The translations under genes and the position numbers were made by a program. This document shows, piece after piece, positions 3,857-31,509 of a stretch of DNA of 33,353 bases. The stretch is from Beijerinckiaceae bacterium (GTDB lineage: Bacteria > Pseudomonadota > Alphaproteobacteria > Rhizobiales > Beijerinckiaceae). The number at the start of each line of letters is the position of its first letter. Positions within the stretch are counted from its first letter, which is position 1. The notes under the pieces were generated by a model. It was given only the letters and a program-made list of their open reading frames with translations, searched no databases and was not told the DNA's origin. Location of the stretch: the NCBI GenBank assembly GCA_947380915.1, contig CANCSY010000011.1, forward strand, positions 1 through 33,353. Reading direction: 5' to 3'.

Positions 3857-3885
3857 TGGACAAGCCTGTCCCTGCCCGCTAGAAC
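3857..3885 (+). promoter_or_regulatory. Predicted sigma-70-type promoter of the EutA/cupin operon
   Basis: -35 TGGACA at 3857-3862, 17-base spacer, -10 TAGAAC at 3880-3885. The geometry is ideal and the elements match consensus at 5/6 and 4/6 positions. A TTAG-N4-CTAA palindrome starts at the last base of the -10, the same arrangement as at the Rieske gene promoter. Confidence 0.55.
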
Positions 3886-3898
3886 TTAGAGAGCTAAT
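3885..3898. promoter_or_regulatory. SlyA/MarR-type operator, copy 1 (EutA/cupin operon)
   Basis: CTTAG-AGAG-CTAAT. The core TTAG-N4-CTAA is the arrangement of the SlyA consensus TTAGCAAGCTAA. It covers the expected transcription start of the predicted promoter, where a bound protein would block initiation. Two further copies lie in the 10837-10941 region, and a MarR-family gene is at 13201. Confidence 0.6.
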
Positions 3899-3982
3899 GG
3901 AAATCCGTGGGCGCAAGCGCCCATGATCGAAAACAGGGGTGAGGAGCGATCATCGAGTCGTCTCCGACCAGGGGTGGAACGG

Positions 3983-5488
3983 ATGCACGATATCGATTTC
4001 GAACATGAGCACGCCCAGCTGAGCGAAGAAGACAAGGCCGCCATGGCCAAGTTCATCTGGAGCCAGGAGAGCGTCGAGCTGAACACGGTCGGCATCGACA
4101 TCGGCAGCTCCACTTCCCATCTGCTCTTCGCCAAGGTCACGCTCCAGCGTCAGTCGCAGGGGCTTTCCAGCCGCTTCGTCGTGACCAACCGCGAAGTGGT
4201 CTGGCGCTCGCCGATCATGCTGACGCCCTTCGTCACGGACGGGTCCATCGACGCCCATGCGCTCGATCACTTCATTCATGACGCCTACAAGCAGGCGGGC
4301 GTGCGGCGCGGCGACATCGACAGCGGCGCGGTGATCCTCACCGGCGAGGCGATCAAGCGCAAGAACGCCCGCGCCATCGACGAACTGTTCGCCGAAGAGG
4401 CCGGCAAATTCGTCTGCGCCACCGCAGGCCACAAGCTGGAATGCACGCTGGCCGCCCATGGCTCGGGCGCCGTCGCCCTCTCGCGCGAGCGCCAGTGCAC
4501 GGTGCTGCATGTGGATATCGGTGGCGGCACCACCAAGCTCGCCCAGATCGAAAAGGGCGTCATCAAGAGCGTTTCCGCTTTCGCCGTGGGCGGGCGCCTG
4601 CTCGCCGCCGACAACAATGGGGACTGGACCCGCGTCGATCAATCGGCCTGGCTCGTGGCGCGCGACCTTGGCATCGGCACGGACGCCAAGACCCTCAGTG
4701 ATCCAGCCAACCGCCAGCGTATCGCGACGCGGCTGGCGGAACTGGCGGTCGATCAGATCACAGGCGCGGAGCTTGATGCGCTGGGCCGCGAACTGCAACT
4801 GACGGATCCGCTGGTGCGGCGCCTGCCCCCTGACGCCATCACCTTCTCGGGCGGCGTCTCCGAGTATATTTTCGAGACCGAGACCCGCGACTTCGGCGAC
4901 ATCGCCAAGGGTCTCGCCATGGAGACGCGCCGCCTGCTCAGCGCGCGCAGCAAGGTCGCCGTGGTGGATCCGGGCAACCGCATCCGCGCCACCGTCATCG
5001 GCGCTTCGCAATTCACCGTGCAGGTCAGCGGCAAGACGATCTTCCTGTCAAAAGCCGACGCCCTGCCGGTCCATAACGTGCCCGTGGCGCCCATCGGCCT
5101 CGACCTGTCCGGAGACATCGACTCCGAGGCCATCGCGCGGGCGATCCGCGACAAGGCCGAGCAACTCGATATTCCCCCCGGCGGGCGCATGGCGGTGTCC
5201 TTCACCTTCGCCGGCGATCCCGAATACAAGCGCCTTTTCGCGCTGGCCAAGGGCATCATGGGGGGCGCTGCGCCTGGCGGCAAACGCCATGATCTGCTGC
5301 TGCTGATGATTGATGGCGATGTGGGCAAGAGCATGGGCAACCTGCTCGTCAAGGAACTCGATTTCCCCGGAGACCTTGTCTCCATCGATGGCGTGCAGCT
5401 TCAGGAACTCGACTATGTCGATGTTGGCGAGCTGATCACGCCCCCGGGCGTCGTGCCTGTGGTGATCAAGTCACTGCTGTTTTCGTGA
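3983..5488 (+). CDS. eutA: EutA-family reactivating ATPase (ethanolamine ammonia-lyase reactivase-like)
   Basis: A 501-residue cytoplasmic protein of the ASKHA ATPase fold. Phosphate-1 (GIDIGSSTSHLLFA, about 37-50), phosphate-2 (VDIGGGTTKLAQ, about 178-189) and the adenosine motif (FSGGVSEYIF, about 288-297) are all intact, so ATP use is expected. EutA in enteric bacteria removes damaged cobalamin from ethanolamine ammonia-lyase. No EutB, EutC, cobalamin enzyme or microcompartment gene is in this window, so the client is unknown. ATG 3983 is preferred to 3923 because AGGGGTGG (3970-3977) is well placed and the 3923 start has no ribosome site. The cupin gene follows after 16 bases in the same unit. 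Family assignment is firm; the role is inferred only. Confidence 0.85.
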   Translation: MHDIDFEHEHAQLSEEDKAAMAKFIWSQESVELNTVGIDIGSSTSHLLFAKVTLQRQSQGLSSRFVVTNREVVWRSPIMLTPFVTDGSIDAHALDHFIHDAYKQAGVRRGDIDSGAVILTGEAIKRKNARAIDELFAEEAGKFVCATAGHKLECTLAAHGSGAVALSRERQCTVLHVDIGGGTTKLAQIEKGVIKSVSAFAVGGRLLAADNNGDWTRVDQSAWLVARDLGIGTDAKTLSDPANRQRIATRLAELAVDQITGAELDALGRELQLTDPLVRRLPPDAITFSGGVSEYIFETETRDFGDIAKGLAMETRRLLSARSKVAVVDPGNRIRATVIGASQFTVQVSGKTIFLSKADALPVHNVPVAPIGLDLSGDIDSEAIARAIRDKAEQLDIPPGGRMAVSFTFAGDPEYKRLFALAKGIMGGAAPGGKRHDLLLLMIDGDVGKSMGNLLVKELDFPGDLVSIDGVQLQELDYVDVGELITPPGVVPVVIKSLLFS

Positions 5489-5504
5489 ACACGAGGAAAC
5501 AACC

Positions 5505-6611
5505 ATGAGCGAGACAACCCCCGCCCGCTACGGCATAGACCCCTATCTCGACTGGATCGCGAAGGAAGGCCTGCCAGTCACCGAGGATTATGGCATCGAC
5601 CTCTTCACGGTCGAGACGAAGATGTGGCCCCGCATCGGCGCCAAGGGCGCCGCGGTGCATCTGAAGGGCCGTGGCGACTTCTGCAACATGTTCCTCGTCG
5701 AACTGGCGCCGGGCGCCTCCACCGAGCCCCAGCGCCATCTCTATGAGGACGTGTACTACGTTCTGGAAGGCTCCGGCTCGACCCAGGTCGAACTGGCTGA
5801 CGGGACGAAGCGCAGCTTCGAATGGGGGCCCAAAAGCCTCTTCGCCATTCCGCTGAACGCGAAGCATCGCCACTTCAATTCCAGCGGCCGCGAACGCGCC
5901 CTGCTCGTCACCACGACCGACCTGCCGCTGGTGATGAACACGTTCCACAACGAGAAGTTCATCTTCGACACGACCTTCGACTTCACCGAGCGCGCAGGCA
6001 AGAGCGGCTACTACAGCGGCGAAGGCGATCTCATCACGGTTCGCCCCGGCAACCACATGTGGGAGACCAATTTCGTTCCCGACCTCGCGGGCATCGAGCT
6101 GAAGAGCTGGGGCGATCGCGGCGCGGGCGGCACCAACATCATGTTCGTGCTCGCAGATGGCACCATGCACGCCCATATCTCGGAAATGCCGGTCGGCACT
6201 TACAAGAAGGGCCATCGCCATGGCCCCGGATTCCATGTGATGTGCGTGACCGGCCATGGATATTCGCTGCTCTGGTTCGACAAGGATCAGGACTTCCTGC
6301 GCATCGACTGGAAGCACGGCGTCGTGTTCCCGCCCGCCGATCAGCAGTTCCACCAGCATTTCAACACCAGCCCTGAGCCCGCGCGCTATCTGGCGACCGG
6401 CGTGGGCGGTCTGCGCTATCCGCTGACGGTGCAGCAGCGCCGCTCCCTGTTGGGCCTGAAGCCCGGCGAAAAGGGCGCGGTCTCCACCAGCATCAAGGAA
6501 GGCGGCGACCAGTACGAATATGACGATCAGGATCCCCGCATCCAGCAGATCTGGGTCGAGGAGACCAGGAAATACGGCGTCGAGCAGAAGATGGACAAAT
6601 TCTTCAAGTAA
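5505..6611 (+). CDS. Two-domain cupin protein (of the type labelled ethanolamine ammonia-lyase-activating)
   Basis: A 368-residue bicupin. The first cupin spans about residues 65-145 (LVELAPGAS, a QRHLYEDVYYVLEGSG metal/turn region, later HRHF). The second spans about 215-300 (GTYKKGHRHGPGFHVM, GHGYSLLW, then FHQHFN). Several histidines are placed as metal ligands, so a mononuclear Fe or Mn dioxygenase or isomerase activity is possible. Homologues carry a label linking them to ethanolamine ammonia-lyase, apparently from co-occurrence with EutA. The start has an AGGAAA-type ribosome site and lies 16 bases after eutA. A strong terminator follows, so eutA and this gene form a closed two-gene operon. 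The substrate is unknown. Confidence 0.82.
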   Translation: MSETTPARYGIDPYLDWIAKEGLPVTEDYGIDLFTVETKMWPRIGAKGAAVHLKGRGDFCNMFLVELAPGASTEPQRHLYEDVYYVLEGSGSTQVELADGTKRSFEWGPKSLFAIPLNAKHRHFNSSGRERALLVTTTDLPLVMNTFHNEKFIFDTTFDFTERAGKSGYYSGEGDLITVRPGNHMWETNFVPDLAGIELKSWGDRGAGGTNIMFVLADGTMHAHISEMPVGTYKKGHRHGPGFHVMCVTGHGYSLLWFDKDQDFLRIDWKHGVVFPPADQQFHQHFNTSPEPARYLATGVGGLRYPLTVQQRRSLLGLKPGEKGAVSTSIKEGGDQYEYDDQDPRIQQIWVEETRKYGVEQKMDKFFK

Positions 6612-6632
6612 GACCCGGACCTCCGCGAAACA

Positions 6633-6665
6633 GGCTCCCCTCCCCCGAGGGGAGCCTTCTGCTTT
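6633..6665 (+). terminator. Rho-independent terminator of the EutA/cupin operon
   Basis: GGCTCCCCT (6633-6641) pairs perfectly with AGGGGAGCC (6648-6656) around a CCCCCG loop, followed by the T-rich TTCTGCTTT. It lies 21 bases after the cupin stop codon. Confidence 0.85.
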
Positions 6666-6676
6666 AAAGAATCAAG

Positions 6677-6704
6677 TTGAACCGCTCGCGCCAGCCTGTA
6701 TCTA
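6677..6704 (+). promoter_or_regulatory. Possible promoter of the decarboxylase-like/nadC pair
   Basis: TTGAAC at 6677-6682 and TATCTA at 6699-6704, separated by 16 bases, sit directly after the upstream terminator. The -10 is a poor match. No TTAG-N4-CTAA box was found here, so this unit may not belong to the same regulon. Confidence 0.3.
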
Positions 6705-6742
6705 GGCTCAGACACATGCGGCCTTGCTCCAGGGGGATACCC

Positions 6743-7726
6743 ATGCCGAATATCCAGTTGACGCTCGCCTGCGGCGATTACGAAATCATCCGCGCCATCA
6801 AGGAGGGCGCCGTGAAGGTGGACGGCGTCGATCTGACTGTCCTCACCGACATCGATTCCAGCACCCGCCACTGGCGTTTCCTGCGCAATCGCGAATTCGA
6901 TGTCGCCGAGGTCTCCGCCTCCTCCTATTTGCTGGCGCGCGATGCGGGCATGGATATCGAGGGCATCCCGGTCTTCCTGCATCGACGCTTCCGCCACGAA
7001 TTCGTCTTCGTGAACACCAAAAAGGGCATCAAGAGCCCCAAGGACCTTATAGGCAAGAAGGTCGGCGTGAAGTCCTTCCAGGTGAGCGCGATCCTGTGGA
7101 TGCGCGGCATTCTCGAACATGAATATGGGGTGCCGCACAAGTCGATCCATTGGCATTCGGAGATCGACGAAGACGTGGAATTCACGCCCGCGCCCGATCT
7201 GCAATGGACGCGCCTCGCCGATGACCAGACGCTGGAAGCCATGCTGGTGGCGGGCGAACTCGACGCCGTCATCCATTCCGACATCATCGAGCCCTATGAG
7301 AAGGGCGACCCCAATGTCGGCCGCCTCTTCGACGACTACAAGGGCGAGGAAGAGCGCTATTTCCAGAAGACCGGCATCTTCCCGATCATGCATGTGATGG
7401 GCATCAAGCGCGACATCGTCGAGCGTTATCCCTGGATCCCGGTCAATCTCTACAAGGCCTTCGACAAGGCCAAGGCCATCGGCATGAAGCGCATGTACAA
7501 CCCGCGCATCGCGCCGCTCGCCTGGTATCGCCACGCCCTTGAAGAGCAGCGCAAGTTGCTGGGCGAGGATCCCTGGGAATATGGGCTCTCCGACAGCAAC
7601 CGGCACAACCTCGACACGCTCGTCGGCTATTCCCACGAGCAAGGCATGCTGAAGCGCCACTGGCCGCTGGACGAACTGTTCCTCAGCGTGTCTCAGGGCC
7701 GCAAGCGCGGCGGCTTCCGCGTCTGA
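6743..7726 (+). CDS. 4,5-dihydroxyphthalate decarboxylase-like protein (periplasmic-binding-protein fold)
   Basis: A 327-residue protein matching the family annotated as 4,5-dihydroxyphthalate decarboxylase, whose members have the fold of solute-binding proteins. It opens MPNIQLTLACGDYE and shows family segments DIDSSTRHWRFLRNREFD, RRFRHEFVFVNT and GVKSFQVSAILWMRG. There is no signal peptide, so it acts in the cytoplasm as an enzyme rather than as a transporter subunit. Start 6743 is chosen for the AGGGGGAT site six bases upstream; the 6677 frame start would add 22 residues across a likely promoter. In phthalate degradation this step turns 4,5-dihydroxyphthalate into protocatechuate. Phthalate-dioxygenase-type genes lie 2-6 kb away, but the family is broad and the real substrate is open. 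Confidence 0.75.
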   Translation: MPNIQLTLACGDYEIIRAIKEGAVKVDGVDLTVLTDIDSSTRHWRFLRNREFDVAEVSASSYLLARDAGMDIEGIPVFLHRRFRHEFVFVNTKKGIKSPKDLIGKKVGVKSFQVSAILWMRGILEHEYGVPHKSIHWHSEIDEDVEFTPAPDLQWTRLADDQTLEAMLVAGELDAVIHSDIIEPYEKGDPNVGRLFDDYKGEEERYFQKTGIFPIMHVMGIKRDIVERYPWIPVNLYKAFDKAKAIGMKRMYNPRIAPLAWYRHALEEQRKLLGEDPWEYGLSDSNRHNLDTLVGYSHEQGMLKRHWPLDELFLSVSQGRKRGGFRV

Positions 7727-7752
7727 TCTGATCCTCGCCCGGAGACCCCCTC

Positions 7753-8610
7753 ATGGCCATGTCCTTCTTCAATCCGATCTATCTCGAAAACGCCGTGCGC
7801 GCGGCCCTTGACGAAGATCTCGGCCGCGCGGGCGACATCACGACGCTCGCCACGATCCCTGCGGGGACGCAGGCCACCGCCGTCTTCGCCGTGCGCAAGC
7901 CCGGCGTGGTCTGCGGCCTGCCCATCGCGGAGGCCTCCTTCCGGCTGATCGACCCCAGCATCCGCTTTGAATCGCTGGTGCAGGACGGCGCCAGCGTGCC
8001 GGGCGACCGCACGCCGGTGGCGCGCGTATCGGGCGACGCACGCGCCATCCTCACCGCCGAACGCACCGCGCTGAACTATATGTCGCGCATGTCGGGCATC
8101 TCGACCCTGACGGCGAAATATGTGGCGCTGGTGGCCCACACCAACGCCAATATCTGCTGCACGCGCAAGACGACGCCGGGCCTGCGCGCGTTTGAAAAAT
8201 ATGCGGTGCGCTGCGGCGGCGCCATGAACCACCGCTTCGGCCTCGATGACGCCGTGCTCATCAAGGACAACCACATCGCGGTCTGCGGCGGCATCCGCGA
8301 GGCCCTGCGCGCCGCCAAGGCCTTCGTGGGCCATCTGGTGAAGGTGGAGATCGAGGTCGACACGCTCGATCAGTTGCAGGAGGTGCTCGACGAGGGCGCG
8401 GACTTCTGCCTGCTCGACAACATGAGCGCGGACATGATGCGCGAAGCCGTTAAAATGTCCGCTGGCCGCGTGAAGCTCGAAGCCTCCGGCGGCATCAATA
8501 TCGAGACGGTGAAGGCCATCGCGGAGACGGGCGTGGACCTCATCTCCTCGGGCGCGCTCACCCATTCGGCGCCGATCCTCGATCTGGGACTGGATATCGA
8601 AATCGGTTAA
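7753..8610 (+). CDS. nadC: Nicotinate-nucleotide pyrophosphorylase (quinolinate phosphoribosyltransferase)
   Basis: A 285-residue NadC with all main active-site features: R104 (TAERTALN), the CTRKTTPGLR segment with R138 and K139, H160-R161 (MNHRFGL) and K171 (LIKDNH). It converts quinolinate and PRPP to nicotinate mononucleotide and CO2 in NAD synthesis. Length is normal. It begins 26 bases after the decarboxylase-like gene, with GGAGACC upstream, so the two are probably cotranscribed. It is not next to nadA or nadB here, which is unusual for a biosynthetic copy. A ModD-type relative is less likely because the motifs are fully NadC-like. Confidence 0.92.
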   Translation: MAMSFFNPIYLENAVRAALDEDLGRAGDITTLATIPAGTQATAVFAVRKPGVVCGLPIAEASFRLIDPSIRFESLVQDGASVPGDRTPVARVSGDARAILTAERTALNYMSRMSGISTLTAKYVALVAHTNANICCTRKTTPGLRAFEKYAVRCGGAMNHRFGLDDAVLIKDNHIAVCGGIREALRAAKAFVGHLVKVEIEVDTLDQLQEVLDEGADFCLLDNMSADMMREAVKMSAGRVKLEASGGINIETVKAIAETGVDLISSGALTHSAPILDLGLDIEIG

Positions 8611-8632
8611 TTGAAATCATGAACGAGAAATA

Positions 8633-8663
8633 CCCTCCCCCGCGTGGTCCCACAGGGGGAGGG
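8633..8663. repeat. GC-rich hairpin downstream of nadC
   Basis: CCCTCCCCC (8633-8641) pairs with GGGGGAGGG (8655-8663); the loop holds a smaller GTGG/CCAC pairing. It is 22 bases after the nadC stop. There is no T-tract. It may stabilise or end the nadC message, or be a member of a REP-like family. Confidence 0.55.
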
Positions 8664-8709
8664 CATGCAGGCTAGTGATCTGATTTATCGTGAAAAACGC
8701 CAGCCGCTT

Positions 8710-8745
8710 CTCCTCCCCCCTGTGGGGAGGAGTGCGGGGTGGGGG
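8710..8745. repeat. Hairpin plus 14-bp repeat, left copy
   Basis: CTCCTCCCC (8710-8718) pairs with GGGGAGGAG (8724-8732). It runs into GTGCGGGGTGGGGG at 8732-8745, which recurs in reverse orientation at 9377-9390. A GAGTG beside the 14-mer is also shared, so the two look like copies of one intergenic repeat. Confidence 0.55.
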
Positions 8746-9376
8746 TCCACGCATCTTGGGAATGAGCGCCTTTTCAGCTGCTTTGCAGAAAATAATCCTT
8801 GACTTTTCCCCCAATATAACTCACATACTCCTCCAGCCCCGCCCCAAGAGGGACTGGACGCGAGCGGTCGTTTTCGGGGGGTGGGGAGCGGTTCCTGCGG
8901 GGCGGCCTACCGGAGGTTGTCTCTCGGGCGATCAACGCAAAAGGCGTGGTTCATCGGCTGGCTGCCGGTGGATATGTCAAAAGGGGTTTCTCCCGCTGAC
9001 GATACGCCCAGTCACCCGTCCGTCCGGCACTACGACCGGGCTGAGCTGATGAAGCTCACAAACCTCAGATGTGGACAAGCGGTGGCCCGAAAGGGTCCCT
9101 TCGAAACATCAGGGTCCGCCGCTCCCCCTCAGCCAGAGGCGCGAGCGTGATCAGACCTGGGCCAAGTGCGGGAGCATTGATCGAATAATCCGTGCAGGGG
9201 GCGCCGCGAGGCGATCAACCCAACACCCAACCAGCGCCAAAACGGCGCCCCCCGCCCCTCAAGGGGCAAGACAGCACCCATCAACCCGGCGCGGGCTCGC
9301 GTGCGGGGTTCAGGTGTGTTCGCTAGACAATGAAGGTTCTTTTGTGTGAACCGCGCTCCCGATCAGCATCTCGCGT

Positions 9377-9390
9377 CCCCCACCCCGCAC
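9377..9390. repeat. 14-bp repeat, right inverted copy
   Basis: CCCCCACCCCGCAC is the exact reverse complement of 8732-8745. The adjoining sequence (CACTCC) also mirrors the left copy, so similarity extends a little past the 14 bases. The two copies frame about 630 bp of unassigned DNA. Confidence 0.5.
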
Positions 9391-9491
9391 CACTCCACGC
9401 GAGGGGGCGGGGATCGGCTGGCATTTCGACCAAGCAGTTAAAATGGCGCGCATCCCTTCGCCGATCGCAAACGGCGGTCAGCGCGACAAGC

Positions 9492-10805
9492 TCATTCGGC
9501 AGCGCTCGCCTCGCCCTGCTGCGCCTCGTTCCACGCAAGCTCCTCGTCAGAGCAACCCAGCGTGCGCCAGTCATAGCCCTTGGGCACCACGCCCTCGAAG
9601 GAGCGCAGCTTGCCATGGGGCACGCGATGTTCATGAGCGCCGATGGCCTTGCCGGTTCTGGCGAAGCTCTGCGCCGCCTCCACCATTTGGCGACGGAATT
9701 CGACGATGGCCAGATCGCTCGCGCCAAGGATCTCGTCGCTGCGATCCGCAATGGCGCCGATGGTCTCCCACATCACGATGTCCTGATTGGGAATGCCGGG
9801 CACGCCGGTGAAATTCCCCAGTTTCATCGCCTGCCGGTCCTGCAGATAATTGTTCGCCAGCGTGCGCACCTTGCGGAAGCTCTTGTCCACATCGATGCCC
9901 ACCTGGCCATGCAGGAACTTGCGCCAGCTTTCGGTGCTGGGCGTATTCACACCGCCCCAGGCGATGAAGTGGAAGGCCGTGTGCGTATCGTCCATCGGCA
10001 CATGCAGGATGGCGATGTTGTACATGTTATTCGAGGGAATCTGCACCGTATAGGGCGCAATGAACAGGGTCGTGCGCACATAGTCATGGGTGGCGGCGTT
10101 GTTGATGGGCCGCCGGATCGCCGAATAGCGGAAGCCGAATGCGGTGCGGTCCACGAAGAGGCGCGGCGCCTTGTCGGTGGAGGGGCGCAGCCAGTTGTTG
10201 TCATTGGCCTTGGCGCCATCCACGCGGGCGGGCAGCATGTCGGAGGAATGGAGCGTGGAGGAATGGGCGGAGTCGATGGCGCCTTCCAGGATCTGCGCCC
10301 AGTTGCAATCCACGATCACCTTGGAAATGGAGATGCGGGTGTCAGGGGTGGGCTGGAACACCGGGGGATCGAAGGCGGGCATCTCGTTGGCGGGGCCCAT
10401 ATAGACCCAGATGAAGCCTGCGGCCTCATGGGTGGGATAGGCCTTCTGCTTCACCTTTTCCTTCAGCGTGCTCTCGCCGGGCTCGGAGGACATGTCGACC
10501 GTATTGCCGTCCACATCGAACTTCCAGCCGTGGTAGAGGCAGCGCAGCCCGCATTCCTCGTTGCGCCCAAAGGCCAGAGAGGCCTTGCGGTGGGGGCAGA
10601 ACTCATCGAGCACGCCCACGCGGCCATCGGAGTCGCGGAAGGCCACGAGATCCTCGCCCAGCAGGCGGATCTTGACGGGATCGCAATCGGGCTCGGCGAC
10701 CTCCTCGGACAGACAGGCCGGAAGCCAGTGCCGACGCATGATCCCGCCCATGGGCGCATCGCCGGTGACATGGGTCAGGATGGCGTTTTCCTCTTGGGTC
10801 AGCAT
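9492..10805 (-). CDS. Rieske oxygenase, phthalate 4,5-dioxygenase type (alpha-only terminal oxygenase)
   Basis: A 437-residue Rieske non-heme iron oxygenase. The 2Fe-2S ligands are C70-x-H72 (FCPHRKAS) and C89-x2-H92 (CLYHGWKFD). Catalytic iron ligands H181 and H186 are in the DSAHSSTLH segment, with D178 just before. The N-terminal MLTQEENAILTHV and GIMRRHWLP are characteristic of the phthalate 4,5-dioxygenase group, which has no beta subunit and uses a separate FMN/2Fe-2S reductase. The reductase is encoded divergently across a 187-bp gap. Start 10805 is chosen for the GGAGGAG site just upstream; the 10862 frame start would lie in the promoter. Substrates of close relatives include phthalate and other carboxylated aromatics; the exact one is unknown. 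Confidence 0.85.
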   Translation of the reverse strand: MLTQEENAILTHVTGDAPMGGIMRRHWLPACLSEEVAEPDCDPVKIRLLGEDLVAFRDSDGRVGVLDEFCPHRKASLAFGRNEECGLRCLYHGWKFDVDGNTVDMSSEPGESTLKEKVKQKAYPTHEAAGFIWVYMGPANEMPAFDPPVFQPTPDTRISISKVIVDCNWAQILEGAIDSAHSSTLHSSDMLPARVDGAKANDNNWLRPSTDKAPRLFVDRTAFGFRYSAIRRPINNAATHDYVRTTLFIAPYTVQIPSNNMYNIAILHVPMDDTHTAFHFIAWGGVNTPSTESWRKFLHGQVGIDVDKSFRKVRTLANNYLQDRQAMKLGNFTGVPGIPNQDIVMWETIGAIADRSDEILGASDLAIVEFRRQMVEAAQSFARTGKAIGAHEHRVPHGKLRSFEGVVPKGYDWRTLGCSDEELAWNEAQQGEASAAE

Positions 10806-10836
10806 GGGCTCCTCCTGCACGTCTGCGTCGCGACAT

Positions 10837-10850
10837 CTTAGGGCTCTAAG
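10837..10850. promoter_or_regulatory. SlyA/MarR-type operator, copy 2 (Rieske gene)
   Basis: CTTAG-GGCT-CTAAG, a 14-base near-perfect palindrome with a TTAG-N4-CTAA core. In the direction of the Rieske gene it begins two bases after the predicted -10, so it covers the expected start point. Its centre is 46 bases from the centre of the 18-bp palindrome at 10881-10898. Confidence 0.65.
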
Positions 10851-10852
10851 AC

Positions 10853-10881
10853 TATCTACCACGCCCCCGGAGGCCTGTCGA
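10853..10881 (-). promoter_or_regulatory. Predicted promoter of the Rieske oxygenase gene
   Basis: Read on the minus strand: -35 TCGACA (10881-10876), a 17-base spacer, -10 TAGATA (10858-10853). Operator copy 2 follows at once. Position and operator match the layout at 3857-3898. Confidence 0.55.
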
Positions 10882-10898
10882 TATGGACCGGTCCATAT
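10881..10898. promoter_or_regulatory. Perfect 18-bp palindrome in the divergent promoter region
   Basis: ATATGGACCGGTCCATAT is self-complementary over all 18 bases. It lies midway between the two TTAG boxes of this region (46 and 45 bases centre to centre) and upstream of both predicted promoters. This is a plausible site for a second, dimeric regulator (activator or TetR-like repressor) acting on both directions. I found no second full copy in the window. Confidence 0.6.
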
Positions 10899-10914
10899 TT
10901 CCGCGCCTGCCCCC

Positions 10915-10943
10915 TTGAACCCGCTGAATTAGACTTCTAAGTT
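10915..10943 (+). promoter_or_regulatory. Predicted promoter of the reductase operon, overlapping operator copy 3
   Basis: -35 TTGAAC at 10915-10920, 17-base spacer, weak -10 TAAGTT at 10938-10943. ATTAG-ACTT-CTAAG at 10928-10941 (TTAG-N4-CTAA core) lies between and over the -10. A protein bound there would occlude the promoter. Confidence 0.5.
10928..10941. promoter_or_regulatory. SlyA/MarR-type operator, copy 3 (reductase operon)
   Basis: ATTAGACTTCTAAG, with the same TTAG-N4-CTAA core as copies 1 and 2. It is 51 bases upstream of the reductase ATG. Confidence 0.6.
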
Positions 10944-10992: not shown

Positions 10993-11964
10993 ATGTCGAG
11001 CCCCGCCTTCGAGACCGCCACGCAACCGCTGCGCATCGCCGCGAAAGACGAGATCGCGCGCGATATTTTCCGTTTCGAGCTGGTCCGGGCCGATGGCGGC
11101 GATCTGCCGGAATTCACCGCGGGCGCCCATGTGAGCCTGCGTACGCCCAATGGGCTGATCCGCAAATATTCCCTCTGCAACGATCCGCAGGAGCGGGACC
11201 GTTACGCCGTCGCAGTGAAGCGCGAAGACCCCGGCACGGGCGGCTCCCTATCCTTCACCCGCGACGCCAAGGTGGGCGACGAGGTGGAGGTGGGCGAGCC
11301 CCGCAATGATTTCCCGCTGGCGGGCAACATCGCCAATCATCTGTTCATTGCGGGCGGCATCGGCATCACGCCGATCTACTCGATGATGCAATATCTCAAG
11401 AGCACGGGCGCGGGGCGCTTCAAGCTCTATTACCTCACCCGCTCGCCCGAACTCACCGCCTTCCGCGAGGAGCTGAAGGCCTCGGCCTATGCGGGCCAGG
11501 TGGTCATCCACCATGATCACGGAGATCCCGAGAAGTCGCTGGACCTCTGGCCCATCCTCGAGAAGCCCCAGGGCCGTCACCTCTATTGCTGCGGCCCCCG
11601 CCCCCTCATGGAGGCGGTGCGCGACATGAGCGGCCATTGGTCGAGCGCCGCCGTGCATTTCGAGGACTTTGGCGCCTCCAAGCCCGCCCACAAGGCGGAT
11701 GACAAGCCCTTCACCGTGCGCCTCGTCAAATCCGGGCGCAGCGTCGAAATCCCTGCAGACGTGTCGATCCTCGACGCCCTGCGCGCCGAGGGCGTCGCTG
11801 TGTCCAGCTCCTGCGAGAGCGGCACCTGCGGCTCCTGCCGCACCAGGCTGCTGGAGGGCGAGGCCGAGCATCGCGACCTCGTGCTGACCGAGCGCGAACA
11901 GGCCAGCAATATCATGATCTGCGTGTCCCGCGCCAAATCCGACGAACTGGTTCTCGACCTGTGA
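10993..11964 (+). CDS. Phthalate-dioxygenase-reductase type oxidoreductase (FMN, NAD(P)H, 2Fe-2S)
   Basis: A 323-residue electron-transfer protein. Domain order is flavin-binding (RKYSLCN, about 57-63), pyridine-nucleotide-binding (GGIGITP, 121-127; CCGPRPLM, 199-206) and a C-terminal plant-type 2Fe-2S domain with C274, C279, C282 and C310. This order, with the ferredoxin domain last, is that of phthalate dioxygenase reductase and VanB. It most likely delivers NADH electrons to the divergently encoded Rieske oxygenase. It could also serve the alpha/beta dioxygenase at 20515-22490, which has no reductase of its own. The stop overlaps the next gene's GTG by four bases. Confidence 0.87.
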   Translation: MSSPAFETATQPLRIAAKDEIARDIFRFELVRADGGDLPEFTAGAHVSLRTPNGLIRKYSLCNDPQERDRYAVAVKREDPGTGGSLSFTRDAKVGDEVEVGEPRNDFPLAGNIANHLFIAGGIGITPIYSMMQYLKSTGAGRFKLYYLTRSPELTAFREELKASAYAGQVVIHHDHGDPEKSLDLWPILEKPQGRHLYCCGPRPLMEAVRDMSGHWSSAAVHFEDFGASKPAHKADDKPFTVRLVKSGRSVEIPADVSILDALRAEGVAVSSSCESGTCGSCRTRLLEGEAEHRDLVLTEREQASNIMICVSRAKSDELVLDL

Positions 11965-13178
11965 GCGGCGCGCAACCCATGGACCAGAACAGGCTACGTC
12001 TGGGCATCGCAGGCCTTGGCCGCGCCTTCAGCCTCATGCTGCCGACGCTGGCGGGGGACGCGCGCATCCATATGGTTGCGGGCGCCGATCCGCGCGCGGA
12101 AGCCCGCGCGCAGTTCGAACGGGACTTTTCCGGGCGCAGCTTCGACAGCGTAGAGGCCATGTGCGAGAGCGCCGACATCGACGCGATCTATATCTCCACG
12201 CCCCACCAGTTCCACCGGGCCCATGTGGAGGCGGCGGCCCGCAACGGCAAACATGTGCTGGTGGAAAAGCCCATGTCCCTGTCCATCGCCGATTGCGCGG
12301 CCATGATCGAGGCGGCCCAGCGCGGCGGCGTGCACATGGTCGTCGGCCACAGCCACAGTTTCGACCGGCCCATCGCGCGGGCGCGGGAAATCGTGGCGTC
12401 CGGCGAAATCGGCCGGTTGCGCATGATCAACGCCATGCAGTTCACGGATTTCCTCTATCGCCCCAGGCGCCCCGAGGAATTACAGACCGATCAGGGCGGC
12501 GGCGTCATCTTCAACCAGGCGCCCCATCAGGTGGACAATGTGCGGCTCATCGCGGGAGGGCGCACAAAGAGCGTGCGCGCGTCCGTGGGCATGTGGGATC
12601 CGGGGCGGCCCACGGAGGGCGCCTATCAGGCCTTCCTGACCTTCGAGAACGACGTCACCGCCGCGATCTCCTACAGCGGCTATGGCCATTTCGACACGGA
12701 CGAATTCTGCGACTGGATCGCCGAAAGCGGCCAGCGCAAGGATCCGGACCGTTACGGGATCGCCCGCGCCGCCCTGAATGGCGTCGATCCCCAAGCTGAA
12801 CTCGCCCTCAAGCAGCAACTGAATTACGGCGGCGAAAAATACACGCCGCCCCATGGGATCAACCCGGCCACCCGCTGGCACCAGCACTTCGGTCTTCTGG
12901 TCGCCTCCTGCGAGGGCGGCGATTTGCGTCCCCAGCCCCATGGCGTCATGATCTATGGCGATTCCACCCGCCGCTTCGAGGCGCTGGAGCCGCCGCCCGT
13001 GCCACGCAGCGAGGTCATGGACGAACTCTGCGCCGCCGTCTTCGAGGGCAAGGCGCCGCTGCATGGAGGGGAATGGGCCATGGCGACCATGGAGGTCTGC
13101 TTCGCCATTCTGGAATCGGCGCGGCGGGGGAGCGAGATCATTCTGTCCCACCAATGCGGGTTGGATGTCGGCGCATGA
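11961..13178 (+). CDS. Gfo/Idh/MocA-family oxidoreductase, phthalate 4,5-cis-dihydrodiol dehydrogenase-like
   Basis: A 405-residue NAD(P)-dependent dehydrogenase. The nucleotide fold shows GIAGLG near residues 15-20 (counting from GTG 11961), EKPMSL for the conserved EKP motif, and a NQAPHQVDN segment that carries the usual catalytic histidine. Length and C-terminal extension fit the Pht4-type dehydrogenase that oxidises the cis-dihydrodiol made by phthalate 4,5-dioxygenase. It overlaps the reductase stop (GTGA), so it is translationally coupled. An in-frame ATG at 11979 is an alternative start. Context makes ring-dihydrodiol oxidation likely, but the family is broad. Confidence 0.82.
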   Translation: MSGAQPMDQNRLRLGIAGLGRAFSLMLPTLAGDARIHMVAGADPRAEARAQFERDFSGRSFDSVEAMCESADIDAIYISTPHQFHRAHVEAAARNGKHVLVEKPMSLSIADCAAMIEAAQRGGVHMVVGHSHSFDRPIARAREIVASGEIGRLRMINAMQFTDFLYRPRRPEELQTDQGGGVIFNQAPHQVDNVRLIAGGRTKSVRASVGMWDPGRPTEGAYQAFLTFENDVTAAISYSGYGHFDTDEFCDWIAESGQRKDPDRYGIARAALNGVDPQAELALKQQLNYGGEKYTPPHGINPATRWHQHFGLLVASCEGGDLRPQPHGVMIYGDSTRRFEALEPPPVPRSEVMDELCAAVFEGKAPLHGGEWAMATMEVCFAILESARRGSEIILSHQCGLDVGA

Positions 13179-13200: not shown

Positions 13201-13770
13201 GTGAGCGAAGCGATGAAAAAGGTCAAGGAGGCTGAGGTCATTCTGCGCCACTGGCGCGAGGCTGTGCCCGACGACCGCTTCGCCCATCTGGTCAAGGACG
13301 CGGGACGCGGCCTCACACGCGCCTTGCAGATGCGCCTGACCGAACATTCGGTCTCCTTCGGCCACTGGACCTTTCTGCGGATTTTGTGGGTGGAGGATGG
13401 CCTGACCCAGCGAGAGTTGAGCGAGCGCGCCGGCCTCATGGAGCCCACCACCTTCTCCGCGCTGAAAGCCATGGAGCAACTGGGCTATGTGGTGCGCCGC
13501 CAGCAGCCGGACAGCCGGAAGAAGGTCTATGTCTTCCTCACCGACACGGGCCGCGCGCTGCGCGACAAGCTGGTGCCCCTGGCCGAGGAAGTGAACCAGA
13601 TCGCGCTCGATGGCATCGACCCAGCAGTGATCGCCGCCGCGCGCGACATGCTGCTGAAGATGATCCACAATCTGGCTGCGGATGAGCAGAAGCAATCGTT
13701 GGAGGAGCGGCGCATGCCCTCCACACGGCAGATTTCGAGCCTTCTGGACCGCGCGCGCAAAGACAACTGA
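13201..13770 (+). CDS. MarR-family transcriptional regulator
   Basis: A 189-residue winged-helix regulator. The central segment LTQRELSERAGLMEPTTFSA is the helix-turn-helix with recognition helix, followed by the wing RRQQPDSRKKVYVFLT (DSRKK is close to the usual DxRxK). The start is GTG at 13201, given AAGGAG at 13187-13192 with eight-base spacing; ATG 13165 is an alternative. It lies inside the catabolic operon, 22 bases after the dehydrogenase gene. It is the only regulator gene in the window and the best candidate for the three TTAG-N4-CTAA boxes, probably as a repressor released by a pathway compound. A longer than usual C-terminal tail (EERRMPSTRQ onwards) is present. Confidence 0.9.
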   Translation: MSEAMKKVKEAEVILRHWREAVPDDRFAHLVKDAGRGLTRALQMRLTEHSVSFGHWTFLRILWVEDGLTQRELSERAGLMEPTTFSALKAMEQLGYVVRRQQPDSRKKVYVFLTDTGRALRDKLVPLAEEVNQIALDGIDPAVIAAARDMLLKMIHNLAADEQKQSLEERRMPSTRQISSLLDRARKDN

Positions 13771-13826
13771 GACACGCAAACACATAGACCGCGCCCATGG
13801 CGGCGCAGGAAATCAAGGGGAAACAG

Positions 13827-15461
13827 ATGGTGATGCGGCGAAGCTATGATTACGTCATCGTCGGCGCGGGTTCGGCGGGCTGCGTGCTCGCCAATCGGCT
13901 GACGCAGGACGAGGGCGCCACGGTTCTGCTGATCGAGGCGGGCGGGCGCGATCTCAATCCGCTCATCCATATTCCCTTGGGCATGGGCAAGATGCATGAA
14001 TATGGCATGCATGACTGGGGCTATCATACGGAGCCCGAGCCCAATCTGAACAACCGCACCATCGAGGCCGCGCGCGGCAAGGTGCTCGGCGGTTCCTCCT
14101 CCATCAATGTGATGGCCTATACGCGCGGCCATCGCGGCGACTATGACCGCTGGGCGCAGAAGGGCTGCAAGGGCTGGTCCTACGCCGATATTCTCCCCTA
14201 TTTCAAACGTGGCGAAACCTTCGCCGATGGCGGCGATGCCTGGCGCGGCGGCGATGGCCCCCTGCAGGTGCAATTCGCCTCGACGCGCGACCCGCTTTTC
14301 GACGCCTGGGTAGAGGCGGCGCGGGCCACTGGCCTGCCCGTCACCGACGACTATAACGGCCAGCAGAACGAGGGCTTCGGCCGCAGCCAATATACGATCG
14401 GCAATGGCAAGCGCTCCTCCTCCGCCGTCGCCTATCTGCATCCCGCCCGCAAGCGCCCCAATCTCACCGTGGATGTGCGCGCGCAGGTGACGCGCGTGAT
14501 GATGAGCGGCACCCATGCGACAGGCGTGGAATATGTGAAGGACAGCCTCGTCGTTCACGCCGAAGCGCGCAAGGAAGTCATCCTCGCCAGCGGAACCTTC
14601 AACACGCCGCAATTGCTCATGCTCTCGGGCATCGGCCCGGCAGCGCATTTGCGGGAAATGGGCGTGGCGCCCGTGGTCGATCTGCCCGTGGGCGAGAATC
14701 TGCAGGACCATCTGGCCGTGCTGATCATGTTCACGCGCCCGCAGAACCAGAGCGCCTTCCGCGACAACATGCGCTTCGACCGCATGGCCTTCAACATGTT
14801 GCGCGCCCACTTCACGGGCACGGGCCCGGGAACCGTTGTCCCCGGCGGGCTGCACGCCTTCATCAAGACGAACCCGGAACTGGCGGTTCCCGATATCGAA
14901 TTCATGTTCCGCGGCCTGCCCACAAACGCCCATCTTTGGTTCCCGGGTGTGCGCCCGGCCTATGAGGATGGCTATGGCATCCGCCCCGCCCTGCTCCATC
15001 CCGACAGCCGGGGCAAGGTGCTTTTGCGCTCCTCCGATCCGCTCGATACGCCGCGCATCATGTACAATTTCTTCTCGGCGTCCACGGATCTGCCCAAGCT
15101 GCGCGAGGGCTTCAAGATCGCCCGCGAAGTGGCCTACAGCAAGCCGATGGACCCATATCGCGGCGTCGAGAAAACGCCGGGCGACAAGGTGAAGACCGAT
15201 GCGGAGATCGACGCATGGATCCGCAAGACGGTCATCACGGCCCACCATCCCGCCGGCACCTGCGCCATGGGCATTGGCCCCGATTCAGTGCTCGATCCCA
15301 CCCTGCGGGTGCGCGGCGTGGAAGGCCTGCGGGTCGTCGACGCCTCCGCCATGCCCGACATGGTGGGCGCCCACATCAACGCCTGCGTGCTGATGATGGC
15401 GGAAAAGGCGGCGGACATGATCCGTGGGAAGGCGCCCCTGCCCGCGCTCGAAAACGCCTGA
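13827..15461 (+). CDS. GMC-family FAD oxidoreductase (choline dehydrogenase-like)
   Basis: A 544-residue flavoprotein of the glucose-methanol-choline family. The N-terminal dinucleotide motif is [16 protein letters not shown], the flavin loop [15 protein letters not shown] is present, and the C-terminal active site shows [10 protein letters not shown] with the later [16 protein letters not shown]. It oxidises an alcohol group, passing electrons to a quinone, O2 or another acceptor. There is no signal peptide, so it is cytoplasmic. ATG 13827 is favoured by AAGGGG six bases upstream; 13797 adds ten residues without a good site. In this operon it could oxidise a hydroxymethyl or alkyl-alcohol side chain of an aromatic substrate; that is inference. 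Confidence 0.85.
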
Positions 15462-15545
15462 TGCTGCGACAGATGGGGCGCTGGACATCAGCGCCCCGAT
15501 GTTTTCTGATGACTTGCAGAAACGGAAAAAGCCCGGGAGACGTCC

Positions 15546-15953
15546 ATGTTGAATCTGAGCAATGTCGTCCATTTCACGATTCCCGTGAAGGAACTCGACC
15601 GGTCCGAACAATTCTATGTGGGGCTGCTTGGCCTTGAGCGTGTGCGGCGCACGGGCCACATGCTGTTCATGCGCTGCGGCGAGACGAATTTCGTCCTCAC
15701 CCTCTCGGAAAACCCCATCGACCCCAACAAGGGCGACAAGCATGAAATCCACACGGCCTTTCTGGTGAGCGCGCAGGATTATGACCGCGCCAAGCAGATT
15801 CTGGCCGAGCATAACGTGCGCGTCTTCAAGGAAGAAGACCGCAGAACCGGCACATTCCAGGGACGCAGCGCCTATTTCCATGACCCCGACCGCAATGTGA
15901 TCGAGATCATCGATCTGGAAAAAGGCCCAGTCTATGAGACGCAGGACGCCTGA
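15546..15953 (+). CDS. VOC (glyoxalase/extradiol dioxygenase fold) family protein
   Basis: A 135-residue single-module VOC protein. Likely metal ligands are H9 (VVHFTI), H69 (HEIHTAF) and E120 (RNVIEIID), in the usual beta-alpha-beta-beta-beta pattern. Such proteins act as isomerases, dioxygenases, epimerases or fosfomycin-type resistance proteins. A GGGAG ribosome site precedes the ATG. It follows the GMC gene by 84 bases and shares its strand, so it is probably part of the same operon. The substrate is unknown. Confidence 0.8.
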   Translation: MLNLSNVVHFTIPVKELDRSEQFYVGLLGLERVRRTGHMLFMRCGETNFVLTLSENPIDPNKGDKHEIHTAFLVSAQDYDRAKQILAEHNVRVFKEEDRRTGTFQGRSAYFHDPDRNVIEIIDLEKGPVYETQDA

Positions 15954-16067
15954 GCAGAACCAATCACACAACAGCCGATGAAGAAAAGACAGACTTGCAG
16001 CAAGAGCGCGCAAGCCCTATCGACGGTCGGCGTTTGCAAACAGCAACCGTTTCATCCTGGAGGAAGC

Positions 16068-16799
16068 ATGAGCGAGGACCTTCTCATCAATCTGACTGGC
16101 GACGTTCTGGAGATCACCCTGAACCGTCCCGAGCGCGGCAACGCCATGTCTGACCAGATGATCCGCGATCTCGGCGATCTCGTCGAGCGCGAGCATGAAA
16201 AGGTGCGCCTGATCGTGCTGCGCGGCAATGGGGATGATTTCTGCGCGGGCCGTTTCAACACCGGCGGCGCGCGCCCCAATGCGCCCGAAGCGCTGGAAGT
16301 GCGCGAGTTCAGCGACCATGTCTTCCGCTGCTATGGCCTGCTGCGCAGCTCCAAGGCGCCGATCATCGCGCAGGTTCAAGGCCGGGCGCTGGGCTTCGGC
16401 TTCGCGCTGGCGGCCGCCGCCGACATCACCATCTGCGCGGACACAGCACAATTCCAGGTGCCCGAGTTCAACCACAACATCATGCCGACCATGGTCATGT
16501 CCTCCATGGTTGATCGCGTGCCTTTGAAGGCGCTCATGTACAATGTCTGGACCAGCCAGATGATCAGCCCGGAGCGGGCGCTGGCCATCGGCGCCGTGAG
16601 CGACATCGTGCCTGCGGCGGAACTCTCGGACAAGGTCGCCGCCCTTGTGAAGCGCCTTTCGGACGCGGCGAAACCCGCCGTGCTGGCGGTTAAGGAATAT
16701 GGCGTGAATGCGCAGCCCATCGACATGCCGAAGGCTGTTCACTTCGCCCGGAGCCTCCATGCGCTGGTGAACTCGTCGAGCCAGCTCAAGCGCAAATAA
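16068..16799 (+). CDS. Crotonase (enoyl-CoA hydratase/isomerase) family protein with one catalytic Glu missing
   Basis: A 243-residue crotonase-fold protein. N-terminal LNRPERGNAMSDQM is typical. The loop usually written AGADI reads CAGRFN (59-64), and the second glycine-rich loop reads RALGFGFALAAAADI. At the position of the first catalytic glutamate of rat enoyl-CoA hydratase there is A113, while the second (E133, VPEFNH) is kept. Plain hydratase activity is therefore doubtful; isomerase, decarboxylase, hydrolase or C-C cleaving activity on a CoA thioester is more likely. The start is ATG 16068 with GGAGGA just upstream; the longer frame from 15978 has no family character. Confidence 0.8.
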   Translation: MSEDLLINLTGDVLEITLNRPERGNAMSDQMIRDLGDLVEREHEKVRLIVLRGNGDDFCAGRFNTGGARPNAPEALEVREFSDHVFRCYGLLRSSKAPIIAQVQGRALGFGFALAAAADITICADTAQFQVPEFNHNIMPTMVMSSMVDRVPLKALMYNVWTSQMISPERALAIGAVSDIVPAAELSDKVAALVKRLSDAAKPAVLAVKEYGVNAQPIDMPKAVHFARSLHALVNSSSQLKRK

Positions 16800-16835
16800 G
16801 ACGTATCTTCGTCGAAACATTCTCTGGTGCCTCCC

Positions 16836-17957
16836 ATGAAGTTCAATTTCTTCCATCTGATGCCGTGGCCCTATTGCGAGGAGCCACCCACCAGTTGGCC
16901 CGTGCCGAATGGGACCTTTGACGCCGTTAAGGCGAAGGCGCTTTACGAAACCTATATCGACGCCATGGCCTATGCGGAGGAGTGCGGCTTTGACTGGGTT
17001 GGCTGCAACGAACATCATTTCAGCCCCTATGGCCTGATGTCGAACTGCAACCTGATCGGCGCGGCGCTCGTCGCCCGCACCAAGAACATCAAGCTGGGCA
17101 TGCTCGGCAATCTCGTGCCACTGCTGAACCCCGTGCGCGTGGCTGAAGAATACGCCATGATCGACGTGATGAGCGGCGGGCGCCTGATCGCGGGCATGAT
17201 GCGCGGCATTCCGCATGAATATTATTCCTACAACATCAACCCCGATGAATCCCTCGGGCGCCTTGATGAAGCCGTGCGGCTCATCATGAAATGCTGGACC
17301 TCGACGGAGCCTTTCCGCTGGGAGGGCACTTATTACAACTATCCCTCCGTTTCGATCTGGCCGCGCCCGATGCAGAGCCCGCCGCCGATTCTGATGTCTG
17401 CGTCAAATCCCGAAGCCGCTGAATTCGCTGCGCGTCACAAGGCGATCATGGGCATGACCCTGATCGCCGACCTTGATGTGGCCCGGAAGAACATGGACCA
17501 TTATGTGTCCTCCGCCCGCAGCCATGGCTGGGAGCCTACCATCGAGCACCGGCTCAGCGGTCATCAGACCGTGATCGCGGAAACCGATGAGGAGGCCCGT
17601 GAGATCATGGGCAATGGCCTCAGATATTTCCATCAGGTGCTGATGCGCCCGCAGCGCGAGGCGCAAACCAAGGTGCTCACGCAATCGAACTATTATGCGA
17701 ATGCAGAGGCGAAACAATATTTCGACAAGCGCCTGGCGACCCTGCGCGAGCGCACTCTGGAGGAACAGATCGAGGCCGGCACCGTGCTGTGCGGCAGCCC
17801 CGAAAGCGTGGTGAAGCAGATGAAAAACATCCACAAGGCGCTGGGCCACGGGGTCTTCAACATGACCATGAAGATCGGCGACATGCCTGATTCAGCTGTC
17901 ACGCGCGGCATGGAACTGTTCCGTGACCGCGTGGCGCCGCATGTGCGGGACCTCTAG
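16836..17957 (+). CDS. LLM-class flavin-dependent monooxygenase (luciferase-like)
   Basis: A 373-residue TIM-barrel flavoprotein of the bacterial luciferase family. It opens MKFNFFHLMPWPY and has CGFDWVGCNEHHFSPYG, RVAEEYAMIDVMSGGRL and a C-terminal TVLCGSPESVVKQMK, all usual in members that use reduced FMN and O2. No flavin reductase gene is alongside, so FMNH2 must come from elsewhere. Start 16836 is preferred over GTG 16827; both lack a strong ribosome site. It is the last gene before a hairpin, 36 bases after the crotonase gene. The role may be oxygenation of a ring or of a C-S or C-N bond. Confidence 0.83.
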   Translation: MKFNFFHLMPWPYCEEPPTSWPVPNGTFDAVKAKALYETYIDAMAYAEECGFDWVGCNEHHFSPYGLMSNCNLIGAALVARTKNIKLGMLGNLVPLLNPVRVAEEYAMIDVMSGGRLIAGMMRGIPHEYYSYNINPDESLGRLDEAVRLIMKCWTSTEPFRWEGTYYNYPSVSIWPRPMQSPPPILMSASNPEAAEFAARHKAIMGMTLIADLDVARKNMDHYVSSARSHGWEPTIEHRLSGHQTVIAETDEEAREIMGNGLRYFHQVLMRPQREAQTKVLTQSNYYANAEAKQYFDKRLATLRERTLEEQIEAGTVLCGSPESVVKQMKNIHKALGHGVFNMTMKIGDMPDSAVTRGMELFRDRVAPHVRDL

Positions 17958-21108: not shown

Positions 21109-21110
21109 CG

Positions 21111-22490: not shown

Positions 22491-22520
22491 CACATGCTCC
22501 TTGCCCGCTGCGCGGCTTGC

Positions 22521-29472: not shown

Positions 29473-29475
29473 CCG

Positions 29476-29997: not shown

Positions 29998-30009
29998 GGG
30001 CGGATTTCC

Positions 30010-31485: not shown

Positions 31486-31509
31486 GCGACTGTTTCCATC
31501 AGCATCCGC

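What the first reader, a model, noticed from the sequence alone, without database searches (positions are those of the whole stretch)
3857..10943. Three TTAG-N4-CTAA operators tie the EutA/cupin operon to the phthalate-type dioxygenase genes
CTTAG-AGAG-CTAAT (3885-3898), CTTAG-GGCT-CTAAG (10837-10850) and ATTAG-ACTT-CTAAG (10928-10941) share one core. By eye I found no other copy in the window. All three overlap predicted promoters. At 3857-3898 and at 10858-10837 the layout is nearly identical: -35, 17-base spacer, -10, then the box at once. TTAG-N4-CTAA is the known SlyA half-site arrangement, and the only regulator gene present is a MarR/SlyA-family member at 13201 in the same cluster. The inference is a single repressed regulon joining EutA, the cupin, the Rieske oxygenase and its reductase operon.
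Basis: partly seen in the sequence, partly recalled or inferred. Interest (0 to 1): 0.75.

Follow-up and report, generated by a model that had tools for sequence, protein, structure and literature searches.

The report
MarR-type switch for phthalate breakdown
Three copies of one short mirror-image DNA word sit at the control points of genes that break down phthalate (a plasticiser acid), and related bacteria keep the same word at the same places together with one regulator gene, so it is very likely that regulator's on/off switch.

Summary
TTAG-N4-CTAA occurs exactly three times in the window (0.02 expected), with no further copy at one mismatch. The boxes precede three putative operons that together carry the four proteins of the phthalate-to-protocatechuate route: eutA-cupin-pht5-nadC, pht3, and pht2-pht4-marR-.... 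In 12 relatives the boxes sit at the same promoters and nowhere else in the 189,505 bases of those loci. In 27 genomes picked only by their Rieske gene, the box is upstream of that gene in 21 of 22 that encode a MarR homologue of 43% identity or more, and in 1 of 5 that do not. Of 12 sampled plasmid loci with this MarR, 11 have a box. A palindrome scan of pht promoters ranks TTAG-N4-CTAA first. Relatives add a second Rieske operon. Binding, repression and inducer are untested. The protein is MarR family but not SlyA. My searches found IclR-type phthalate regulators but no characterised MarR one for this route.

The parts
3857..3885 (+). promoter-like element of the eutA operon: TGGACA, 17 bases, TAGAAC
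   Evidence: read; -35-like element conserved at a near-fixed distance from the box in relatives; not found by the strict scan
3885..3898 (.). box 1, CTTAG-AGAG-CTAAT, centre 91 bases before the eutA ATG
   Evidence: exact box in 11 of the 12 aligned relatives, lost in L006
3983..5488 (+). EutA-like protein (Pfam EutA 373 bits when read from 3923; ATG at 3983 likely)
   Evidence: fails the EutA equivalog cut-offs of NCBIfam
5505..6611 (+). cupin protein, possibly of the gentisate-dioxygenase type
   Evidence: Cupin_2 36 bits; weak match (29.7 of 650 bits) to 5-aminosalicylate 1,2-dioxygenase
6737..7726 (+). pht5-like 4,5-dihydroxyphthalate decarboxylase (NMT1-like)
   Evidence: 9jp7, 192 bits, E 1.5e-55
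7753..8610 (+). nadC-type quinolinate phosphoribosyltransferase
   Evidence: TIGR00078, 328.6 bits over cut-off 198.4
9492..10805 (-). pht3-like Rieske oxygenase (LigXa_C type)
   Evidence: 7fjl 629 bits; 7fhr 'Putative Phthalate 4,5-dioxygenase, subunit alpha' 230 bits
10837..10850 (.). box 2, CTTAG-GGCT-CTAAG, operator of pht3
   Evidence: exact in 8 of 8 aligned relatives
10853..10881 (-). promoter-like element of pht3: TCGACA, 17 bases, TAGATA
   Evidence: not found by the strict scan
10915..10943 (+). promoter-like element of the pht2 operon: TTGAAC, 17 bases, TAAGTT
   Evidence: not found by the strict scan
10928..10941 (.). box 3, ATTAG-ACTT-CTAAG, operator of the pht2-pht4-marR operon
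   Evidence: exact in 6 of 8 aligned relatives, degenerate in L004 and L009
10993..11964 (+). pht2-like reductase (FAD, NAD, 2Fe-2S)
11961..13178 (+). pht4-like dihydrodiol dehydrogenase (GFO/IDH/MocA)
   Evidence: 7wzd '4,5-dihydroxyphthalate dehydrogenase', 472 bits
13216..13770 (+). MarR-family regulator, the proposed repressor (ATG 13216; GTG 13201 possible)
13797..17957 (+). rest of the putative box-3 operon: GMC oxidoreductase, VOC protein, enoyl-CoA hydratase, luciferase-like monooxygenase
   Evidence: operon membership inferred from spacing and strand

Best explanation
The three TTAG-N4-CTAA palindromes are operators of the MarR-family protein encoded at 13216-13770. As a dimer it sits on the box at the promoter (just past the -10 at eutA and pht3; on the spacer and -10 at pht2) and blocks transcription. 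When phthalate or a pathway intermediate binds it, it lets go. All three transcripts then rise together: eutA-cupin-pht5-nadC, pht3, and pht2-pht4-marR and beyond. Because marR is in the third transcript, the repressor controls its own supply. Shown here: the boxes, their conservation at the same promoters, their co-occurrence with this MarR, and the phthalate-type identity of the enzymes. Inferred: operons, binding, repression, autoregulation. Guessed: the inducer.
Against: No binding or expression data. A MarR paralogue of 53-65% identity with nearly the same recognition helix exists in 10 of the 12 close relatives, without a box within the up to 8 kb fetched; it could bind the same boxes. 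G1091 has MarR (45%, same contig) and a pht3 gene but no exact box; G864 has a box but only a 35% MarR hit on another contig of a 2.5 Mb assembly. L150 and L151 have close MarRs (63, 68%), no pht genes and no box nearby; L146 has MarR (54%) with TTCG-N4-CTAA variants only; L147 (48%) and L159 (36%) have none; L182 (54%) has one-mismatch sites only. In L177 the only box stands away from the pht genes. 29 of 76 sites in the 12 relatives are unassigned. The strict promoter scan found no sigma-70 promoter.
Confidence: 0.86

Rival explanations
1. The boxes are real operators of a MarR-type repressor, but the paralogous MarR (beside a TPP enzyme and a PCuAC copper chaperone) or both paralogues read them.
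For: The paralogue has an almost identical recognition helix (MEPTAFAALHAMEKLGY against MEPTTFSALKAMEQLGY) and occurs in 10 of 12 close relatives. A second Rieske operon with its own box has no MarR homologue in the fetched stretch.
Against: No box within the up to 8 kb fetched around any of the 10 paralogue loci. In the order sample 7 of the 10 pht3 genomes gave a single MarR match and still carry the box; G001, G056 and G101 gave two, the second being only 35% and 30% in the last two. In 9 of 10 annotated plasmid loci the MarR sits among pht genes.
Confidence: 0.08
2. The palindromes are targets of an unrelated regulator (for example a TetR or LysR protein encoded elsewhere) and the MarR link is linkage only.
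For: No direct binding evidence; the window has no whole genome to search.
Against: Co-occurrence of MarR and box over 27 genomes chosen by Rieske gene, over plasmids of alpha-, beta- and gammaproteobacteria, and absence of the box in three pht-bearing genomes without MarR. The motif is the SlyA one (PMC5797941).
Confidence: 0.05
3. Chance or composition: short AT-rich palindromes that happen to lie in AT-rich promoters.
For: TTAG-N4-CTAA has only 8 fixed bases; promoters tend to be AT-richer than genes (general knowledge).
Against: 0 of 100 shuffles reach three; same places in 12 relatives; de novo rank 1; 1.6 sites per Mb in the relatives, cluster sites included (76 in about 48 Mb).
Confidence: 0.01

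Closest known systems
SlyA operator (Salmonella, E. coli), consensus TTAGCAAGCTAA / TTAN6TAA (PMC5797941, passages read)
   Same: Same 12-bp palindrome with half-site TTAG and 4-base spacer; same protein fold
   Different: Protein is not a SlyA orthologue (20.6 of 120 bits); the predicted targets are mainly one catabolic pathway, not a broad virulence and envelope regulon; H-NS antagonism not examined
IclR-type phthalate regulators: OphR (Rhodococcus DK17), IphR and TphR (Comamonas E6) (PMC8222616, passages)
   Same: Control phthalate-isomer catabolic operons
   Different: Different protein family and different boxes (CGCGTACGCG; GTCTCATCAGAC; TTTTTGCGCATAGCGCAAAAA)
MarR repressors of aromatic catabolism: DesR of Sphingobium SYK-6 (PMC6888825, passages), CouR (PMC4737184, abstract start in the search listing)
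   Same: Local MarR repressor of catabolic genes, released by a pathway compound
   Different: DesR boxes are GTTTGTGTCACATAC-like, not TTAG-N4-CTAA; substrates differ
MarR gene noted in the Thalassospira phdK-pht cluster (PMC9604089, passages)
   Same: Same gene neighbourhood; Thalassospira plasmid locus L184 here has the box TTAGATATCTAA between pht2 and pht3
   Different: In the passages read the paper names the gene only; no operator or regulon work seen

Membership tests
MarR family regulator | MarR winged-helix domain | tested here: met
MarR family regulator | binds a short palindrome at a promoter and is released by a ligand | not testable with these tools
   palindromes present and conserved; binding needs the bench
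SlyA | orthology to SlyA | tested here: not met
   NCBIfam PRK03573 20.6 bits, cut-off 120
SlyA-type operator | TTAG-N4-CTAA / TTAN6TAA palindrome at promoters | tested here: met
   consensus from PMC5797941
phthalate 4,5-dioxygenase (pht) cluster | Rieske oxygenase close to solved phthalate dioxygenases | tested here: met
   7fjl 629 bits over residues 1-425; that 7fjl is a phthalate dioxygenase is recalled, its deposited name is only Rieske (2Fe-2S) domain protein; 7fhr is named putative phthalate 4,5-dioxygenase, 230 bits
phthalate 4,5-dioxygenase (pht) cluster | 4,5-dihydrodiol dehydrogenase and 4,5-dihydroxyphthalate decarboxylase genes alongside | tested here: met
   7wzd 472 bits; 9jp7 192 bits
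phthalate 4,5-dioxygenase (pht) cluster | growth on or turnover of phthalate | not testable with these tools
   no culture; window from an unnamed source
EutA, ethanolamine ammonia-lyase reactivase | works with EutB/EutC | tested here: not met
   EutB (PF06751) not found in 18 of 18 EutA-bearing relatives searched, found in the E. coli control; the relatives are MAGs and may be incomplete; NCBIfam EutA cut-offs not reached

The most novel reading that the evidence does not exclude
The EutA-like ATPase and its partner cupin are unrecognised working parts of phthalate-type ring degradation: not an ethanolamine system but an enzyme-reactivating pair (or a new enzyme with its reactivase) that one MarR switch turns on together with the dioxygenase. 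The same switch forms an uncharacterised phthalate regulon shared by alpha-, beta- and gammaproteobacteria and spread on plasmids.
Probability: 0.3. Interest if true: 0.65.

Novelty: new member of a known kind. Interest (0 to 1): 0.5.

Why it matters
Phthalate is the core of common plasticisers. [quoted passage not shown] A MarR switch with a defined 12-bp operator, seen here from Beijerinckiaceae MAGs to Burkholderiales and Pseudomonas plasmids, gives a testable sensor and a marker for finding further phthalate-related genes, such as the second Rieske operon and the EutA/cupin pair seen here.

Tried and rejected
Own-genome scan: no genome is held for the window, so the genome-wide count comes from relatives. 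Looping between boxes 2 and 3: rejected as a general mechanism, since their distance varies (91, 101, 91, 100, 103, 73, 99 in W, L001, L002, L003, L006, L010, L019). Box for the MarR paralogue: none found within the up to 8 kb fetched at 10 loci, some of them cut short by contig ends. Sigma-70 scan: nothing. Literature search for four exact boxes: seven papers, six on human or mouse genetics and one on a cyanobacterium, judged unrelated from the listing. Searches for a characterised MarR phthalate regulator showed none in their listings; many subscription papers are not held and the listings are capped, so this is no proof of absence. Selection: 36 sources picked by me, after I had seen boxes in most of them, because they hold pht genes with or near a MarR. 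Left out of that count: L154 (boxes present), L158 (box before its MarR), and L146, L147, L150, L151, L159, L182 (no exact box). The Rieske and reductase regions of one divergent promoter overlap, so many boxes are counted in both, and the 60 regions of the palindrome scan are not independent. In one search, 12 of 150 plasmid records were read. Thresholds (43% MarR identity, 350 bp) were set after seeing the data, and the 27 genomes are related to each other, so the Fisher p is only a guide. Five of the nine order genomes with MarR but no close Rieske gene (G033, G041, G117, G183, G235) were not looked at beyond the short locus. The reversed-pattern control differs in composition and is a rough guide only. 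No structural family was excluded by the fold search.
Full report
What is there. The pattern TTAG-N4-CTAA occurs three times in the 33,353-base window, at 3886-3897, 10838-10849 and 10929-10940, against 0.02 expected, and not again at one mismatch. A weight matrix that includes the window's own sites separates the three from the rest of the window by 18 bits; one from distant loci only, by 12 bits.

What the boxes control. Reading the genes with Pfam, NCBIfam and the PDB shows a phthalate 4,5-dioxygenase route split over three putative transcripts. Box 1 precedes eutA-cupin-pht5-nadC, box 2 precedes pht3 (the Rieske oxygenase), and box 3 precedes pht2 (reductase), pht4 (dihydrodiol dehydrogenase), marR, GMC oxidoreductase, VOC protein, enoyl-CoA hydratase and a luciferase-like monooxygenase. 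The Rieske protein matches 7fjl at 629 bits and 7fhr (named putative phthalate 4,5-dioxygenase alpha) at 230. The GFO/IDH/MocA protein matches 7wzd (4,5-dihydroxyphthalate dehydrogenase) at 472. The NMT1-like protein matches 9jp7 (4,5-dihydroxyphthalate decarboxylase) at 192. The route Pht2/Pht3, Pht4, Pht5 from phthalate to protocatechuate is as described for Thalassospira (PMC9604089, passages). So the EutA/cupin operon is tied to the dioxygenase not only by a box but by carrying the decarboxylase.

Close relatives. One scan with EutA gave 24 loci. Twelve have exact boxes, 25 sites in 189,505 bases, all at the same promoters and none elsewhere in those loci. Alignments show the flanks diverging while the box and a -35-like element stay. 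Box 1 is exact in 11 of 12 aligned relatives, box 2 in 8 of 8, box 3 in 6 of 8: L006 lost box 1; L004 and L009 have a degenerate box 3. The other twelve loci have none at eutA. Of these L011, L017, L020 and L022 begin inside eutA and L013 begins inside gfo, so the promoter is not seen; nearly all have EutA of 50-65% identity (L011 82%). For L012, L020, L021 and L022 a box is found elsewhere in the same genome in the locus of the MarR (G014, G021, G022, G023); in G022 it stands before another gene and the Rieske promoter is cut off. For L014-L017 and L024 no MarR close to this one exists (best hits 24-36 bits) and no box is near eutA.

Different layouts. In a Devosia MAG and other relatives the order is gfo-marR-eutA (L141, L142, L144), so there eutA has no box of its own but lies behind marR; a box stands upstream where the contig reaches far enough (L142, about 900 bases before gfo; L144, before the reductase gene). 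This is independent support for one regulon.

Whole genomes of relatives. In 12 genomes (about 48 Mb) there are 76 sites, 5-9 each. I place 33 of 76 at the pht cluster, 10 in front of a second LigXa_C Rieske gene (59-64% identity) and 4 in front of an alpha/beta hydrolase gene, followed by a luciferase-like monooxygenase gene; 29 stay unassigned. Next to the second Rieske gene in L067 lie genes for a FAA hydrolase, a pirin and a DAO-type oxidoreductase on the same strand.

Blind test. Rieske orthologues at E 1e-100 or better were sought in order, phylum and class samples (397, 398 and 385 genomes): 27 different genomes. MarR was then sought and 350 bases upstream of each Rieske gene read. With MarR of 43% identity or more: 21 of 22 have the box. 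Without: 1 of 5. The exceptions are G1091 (MarR 45%, only degenerate half-sites) and G864 (box TTAGATATCTAA, MarR 35% on another contig, 2.5 Mb assembly). G934, G1021 and G1092, with similar promoter sequences, have a pht3 gene and a pht5-like gene, no such MarR and no box; G958, the fourth without, has a Rieske gene of only 42% identity.

Plasmids. 150 plasmid records match the MarR at E 1e-5 or better, 145 of them below 60% identity; I read 12. In 11 of 12 there is an exact box. It lies within 300 bases of the Rieske or reductase start in six (L175, L179, L181, L183, L184, L185), before a longer Rieske operon in L178 and L180, by the MarR or transporter gene in L176 and L186, and away from the pht genes in L177. 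The hosts are Caballeronia, Paraburkholderia, Pseudomonas luteola, Acidovorax, a Comamonadaceae strain, Variovorax WDL1, Polaromonas, Massilia, Phaeobacter and Thalassospira. In L178 the box is exactly TTAGCAAGCTAA. L182 (Variovorax SRS16, no Rieske or reductase gene of this kind in the stretch) has one-mismatch sites only.

Motif check. In 60 promoter regions left after dropping the near-duplicates L001-L004, L079, L090 and L157, all 256 four-base half-sites at spacers 0-12 were counted: TTAG with spacer 4 came first with 48 of 60, TAGA with spacer 2 (the same box read inwards) second with 36. The regions were picked by me and overlap in divergent promoters. Box counts in the full hand-picked set: Rieske 29 of 33, reductase 29 of 35, eutA 8 of 10. 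The misses are L175, L176, L178, L180 (Rieske), L176, L177, L178, L180, L181, L186 (reductase), L006 and L144 (eutA); most of them have a box farther up the likely operon.

How it works, most likely. A dimer bound at box 1 or 2 covers the start region just past the -10; at box 3 it covers the spacer and -10. Both would block RNA polymerase, so repression is the natural reading. Since marR is in the box-3 operon, it would be self-regulated. The inducer is unknown; phthalate or a pathway intermediate is the first guess.

Known or new. TTAG-N4-CTAA is the SlyA operator (PMC5797941). Known phthalate regulators that I found are IclR proteins with other boxes (PMC8222616). The MarR gene has been noticed in the Thalassospira cluster (PMC9604089). 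I found no paper on its operator or regulon in the held library. I therefore call it a new member of a known kind: a predicted, well-supported, apparently uncharacterised MarR regulon.

Noticed in passing
window 3983-6611; L001-L022, L024: The EutA-like gene has a cupin gene beside it in 23 of 24 EutA loci (L023 is cut off by the contig end), while EutB was not found in 18 of 18 genomes searched. A conserved pair of unknown job.
   Followed up: partly
L043, L047, L051, L053, L057, L067, L068, L072, L074, L085: 10 of 12 relatives have a second LigXa_C-like Rieske gene with its own TTAG-N4-CTAA box; neighbours in L067 include FAA hydrolase, pirin and DAO-type genes. Substrate unknown.
   Followed up: partly
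L044, L049, L054, L084: The same box stands before an alpha/beta hydrolase gene followed by a luciferase-like monooxygenase gene in four relatives.
   Followed up: partly
L161-L170: A MarR paralogue (in L161 beside a TPP enzyme and a PCuAC copper chaperone) has nearly the same recognition helix but no box nearby.
   Followed up: partly
window 7753-8610; L148, L149, L181-L185: A nadC-type quinolinate phosphoribosyltransferase gene recurs beside this MarR, mostly in pht clusters, as if a quinolinate-like compound were handled.
   Followed up: no
window 20515-24688: A second ring-hydroxylating dioxygenase (alpha and beta subunits) lies with a glutamine-synthetase-like gene and a class II aldolase, an arrangement that recalls aniline-type degradation (resemblance recalled).
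   Followed up: no
window 27226-32391: A fixGHI / cbb3 oxidase (fixP) cluster follows the degradation genes.
   Followed up: no
L146: A Herbaspirillum MAG with a 54% MarR has TTCG-N4-CTAA variants at the marR/Rieske promoters instead of TTAG-N4-CTAA, a possible co-varying operator.
   Followed up: no
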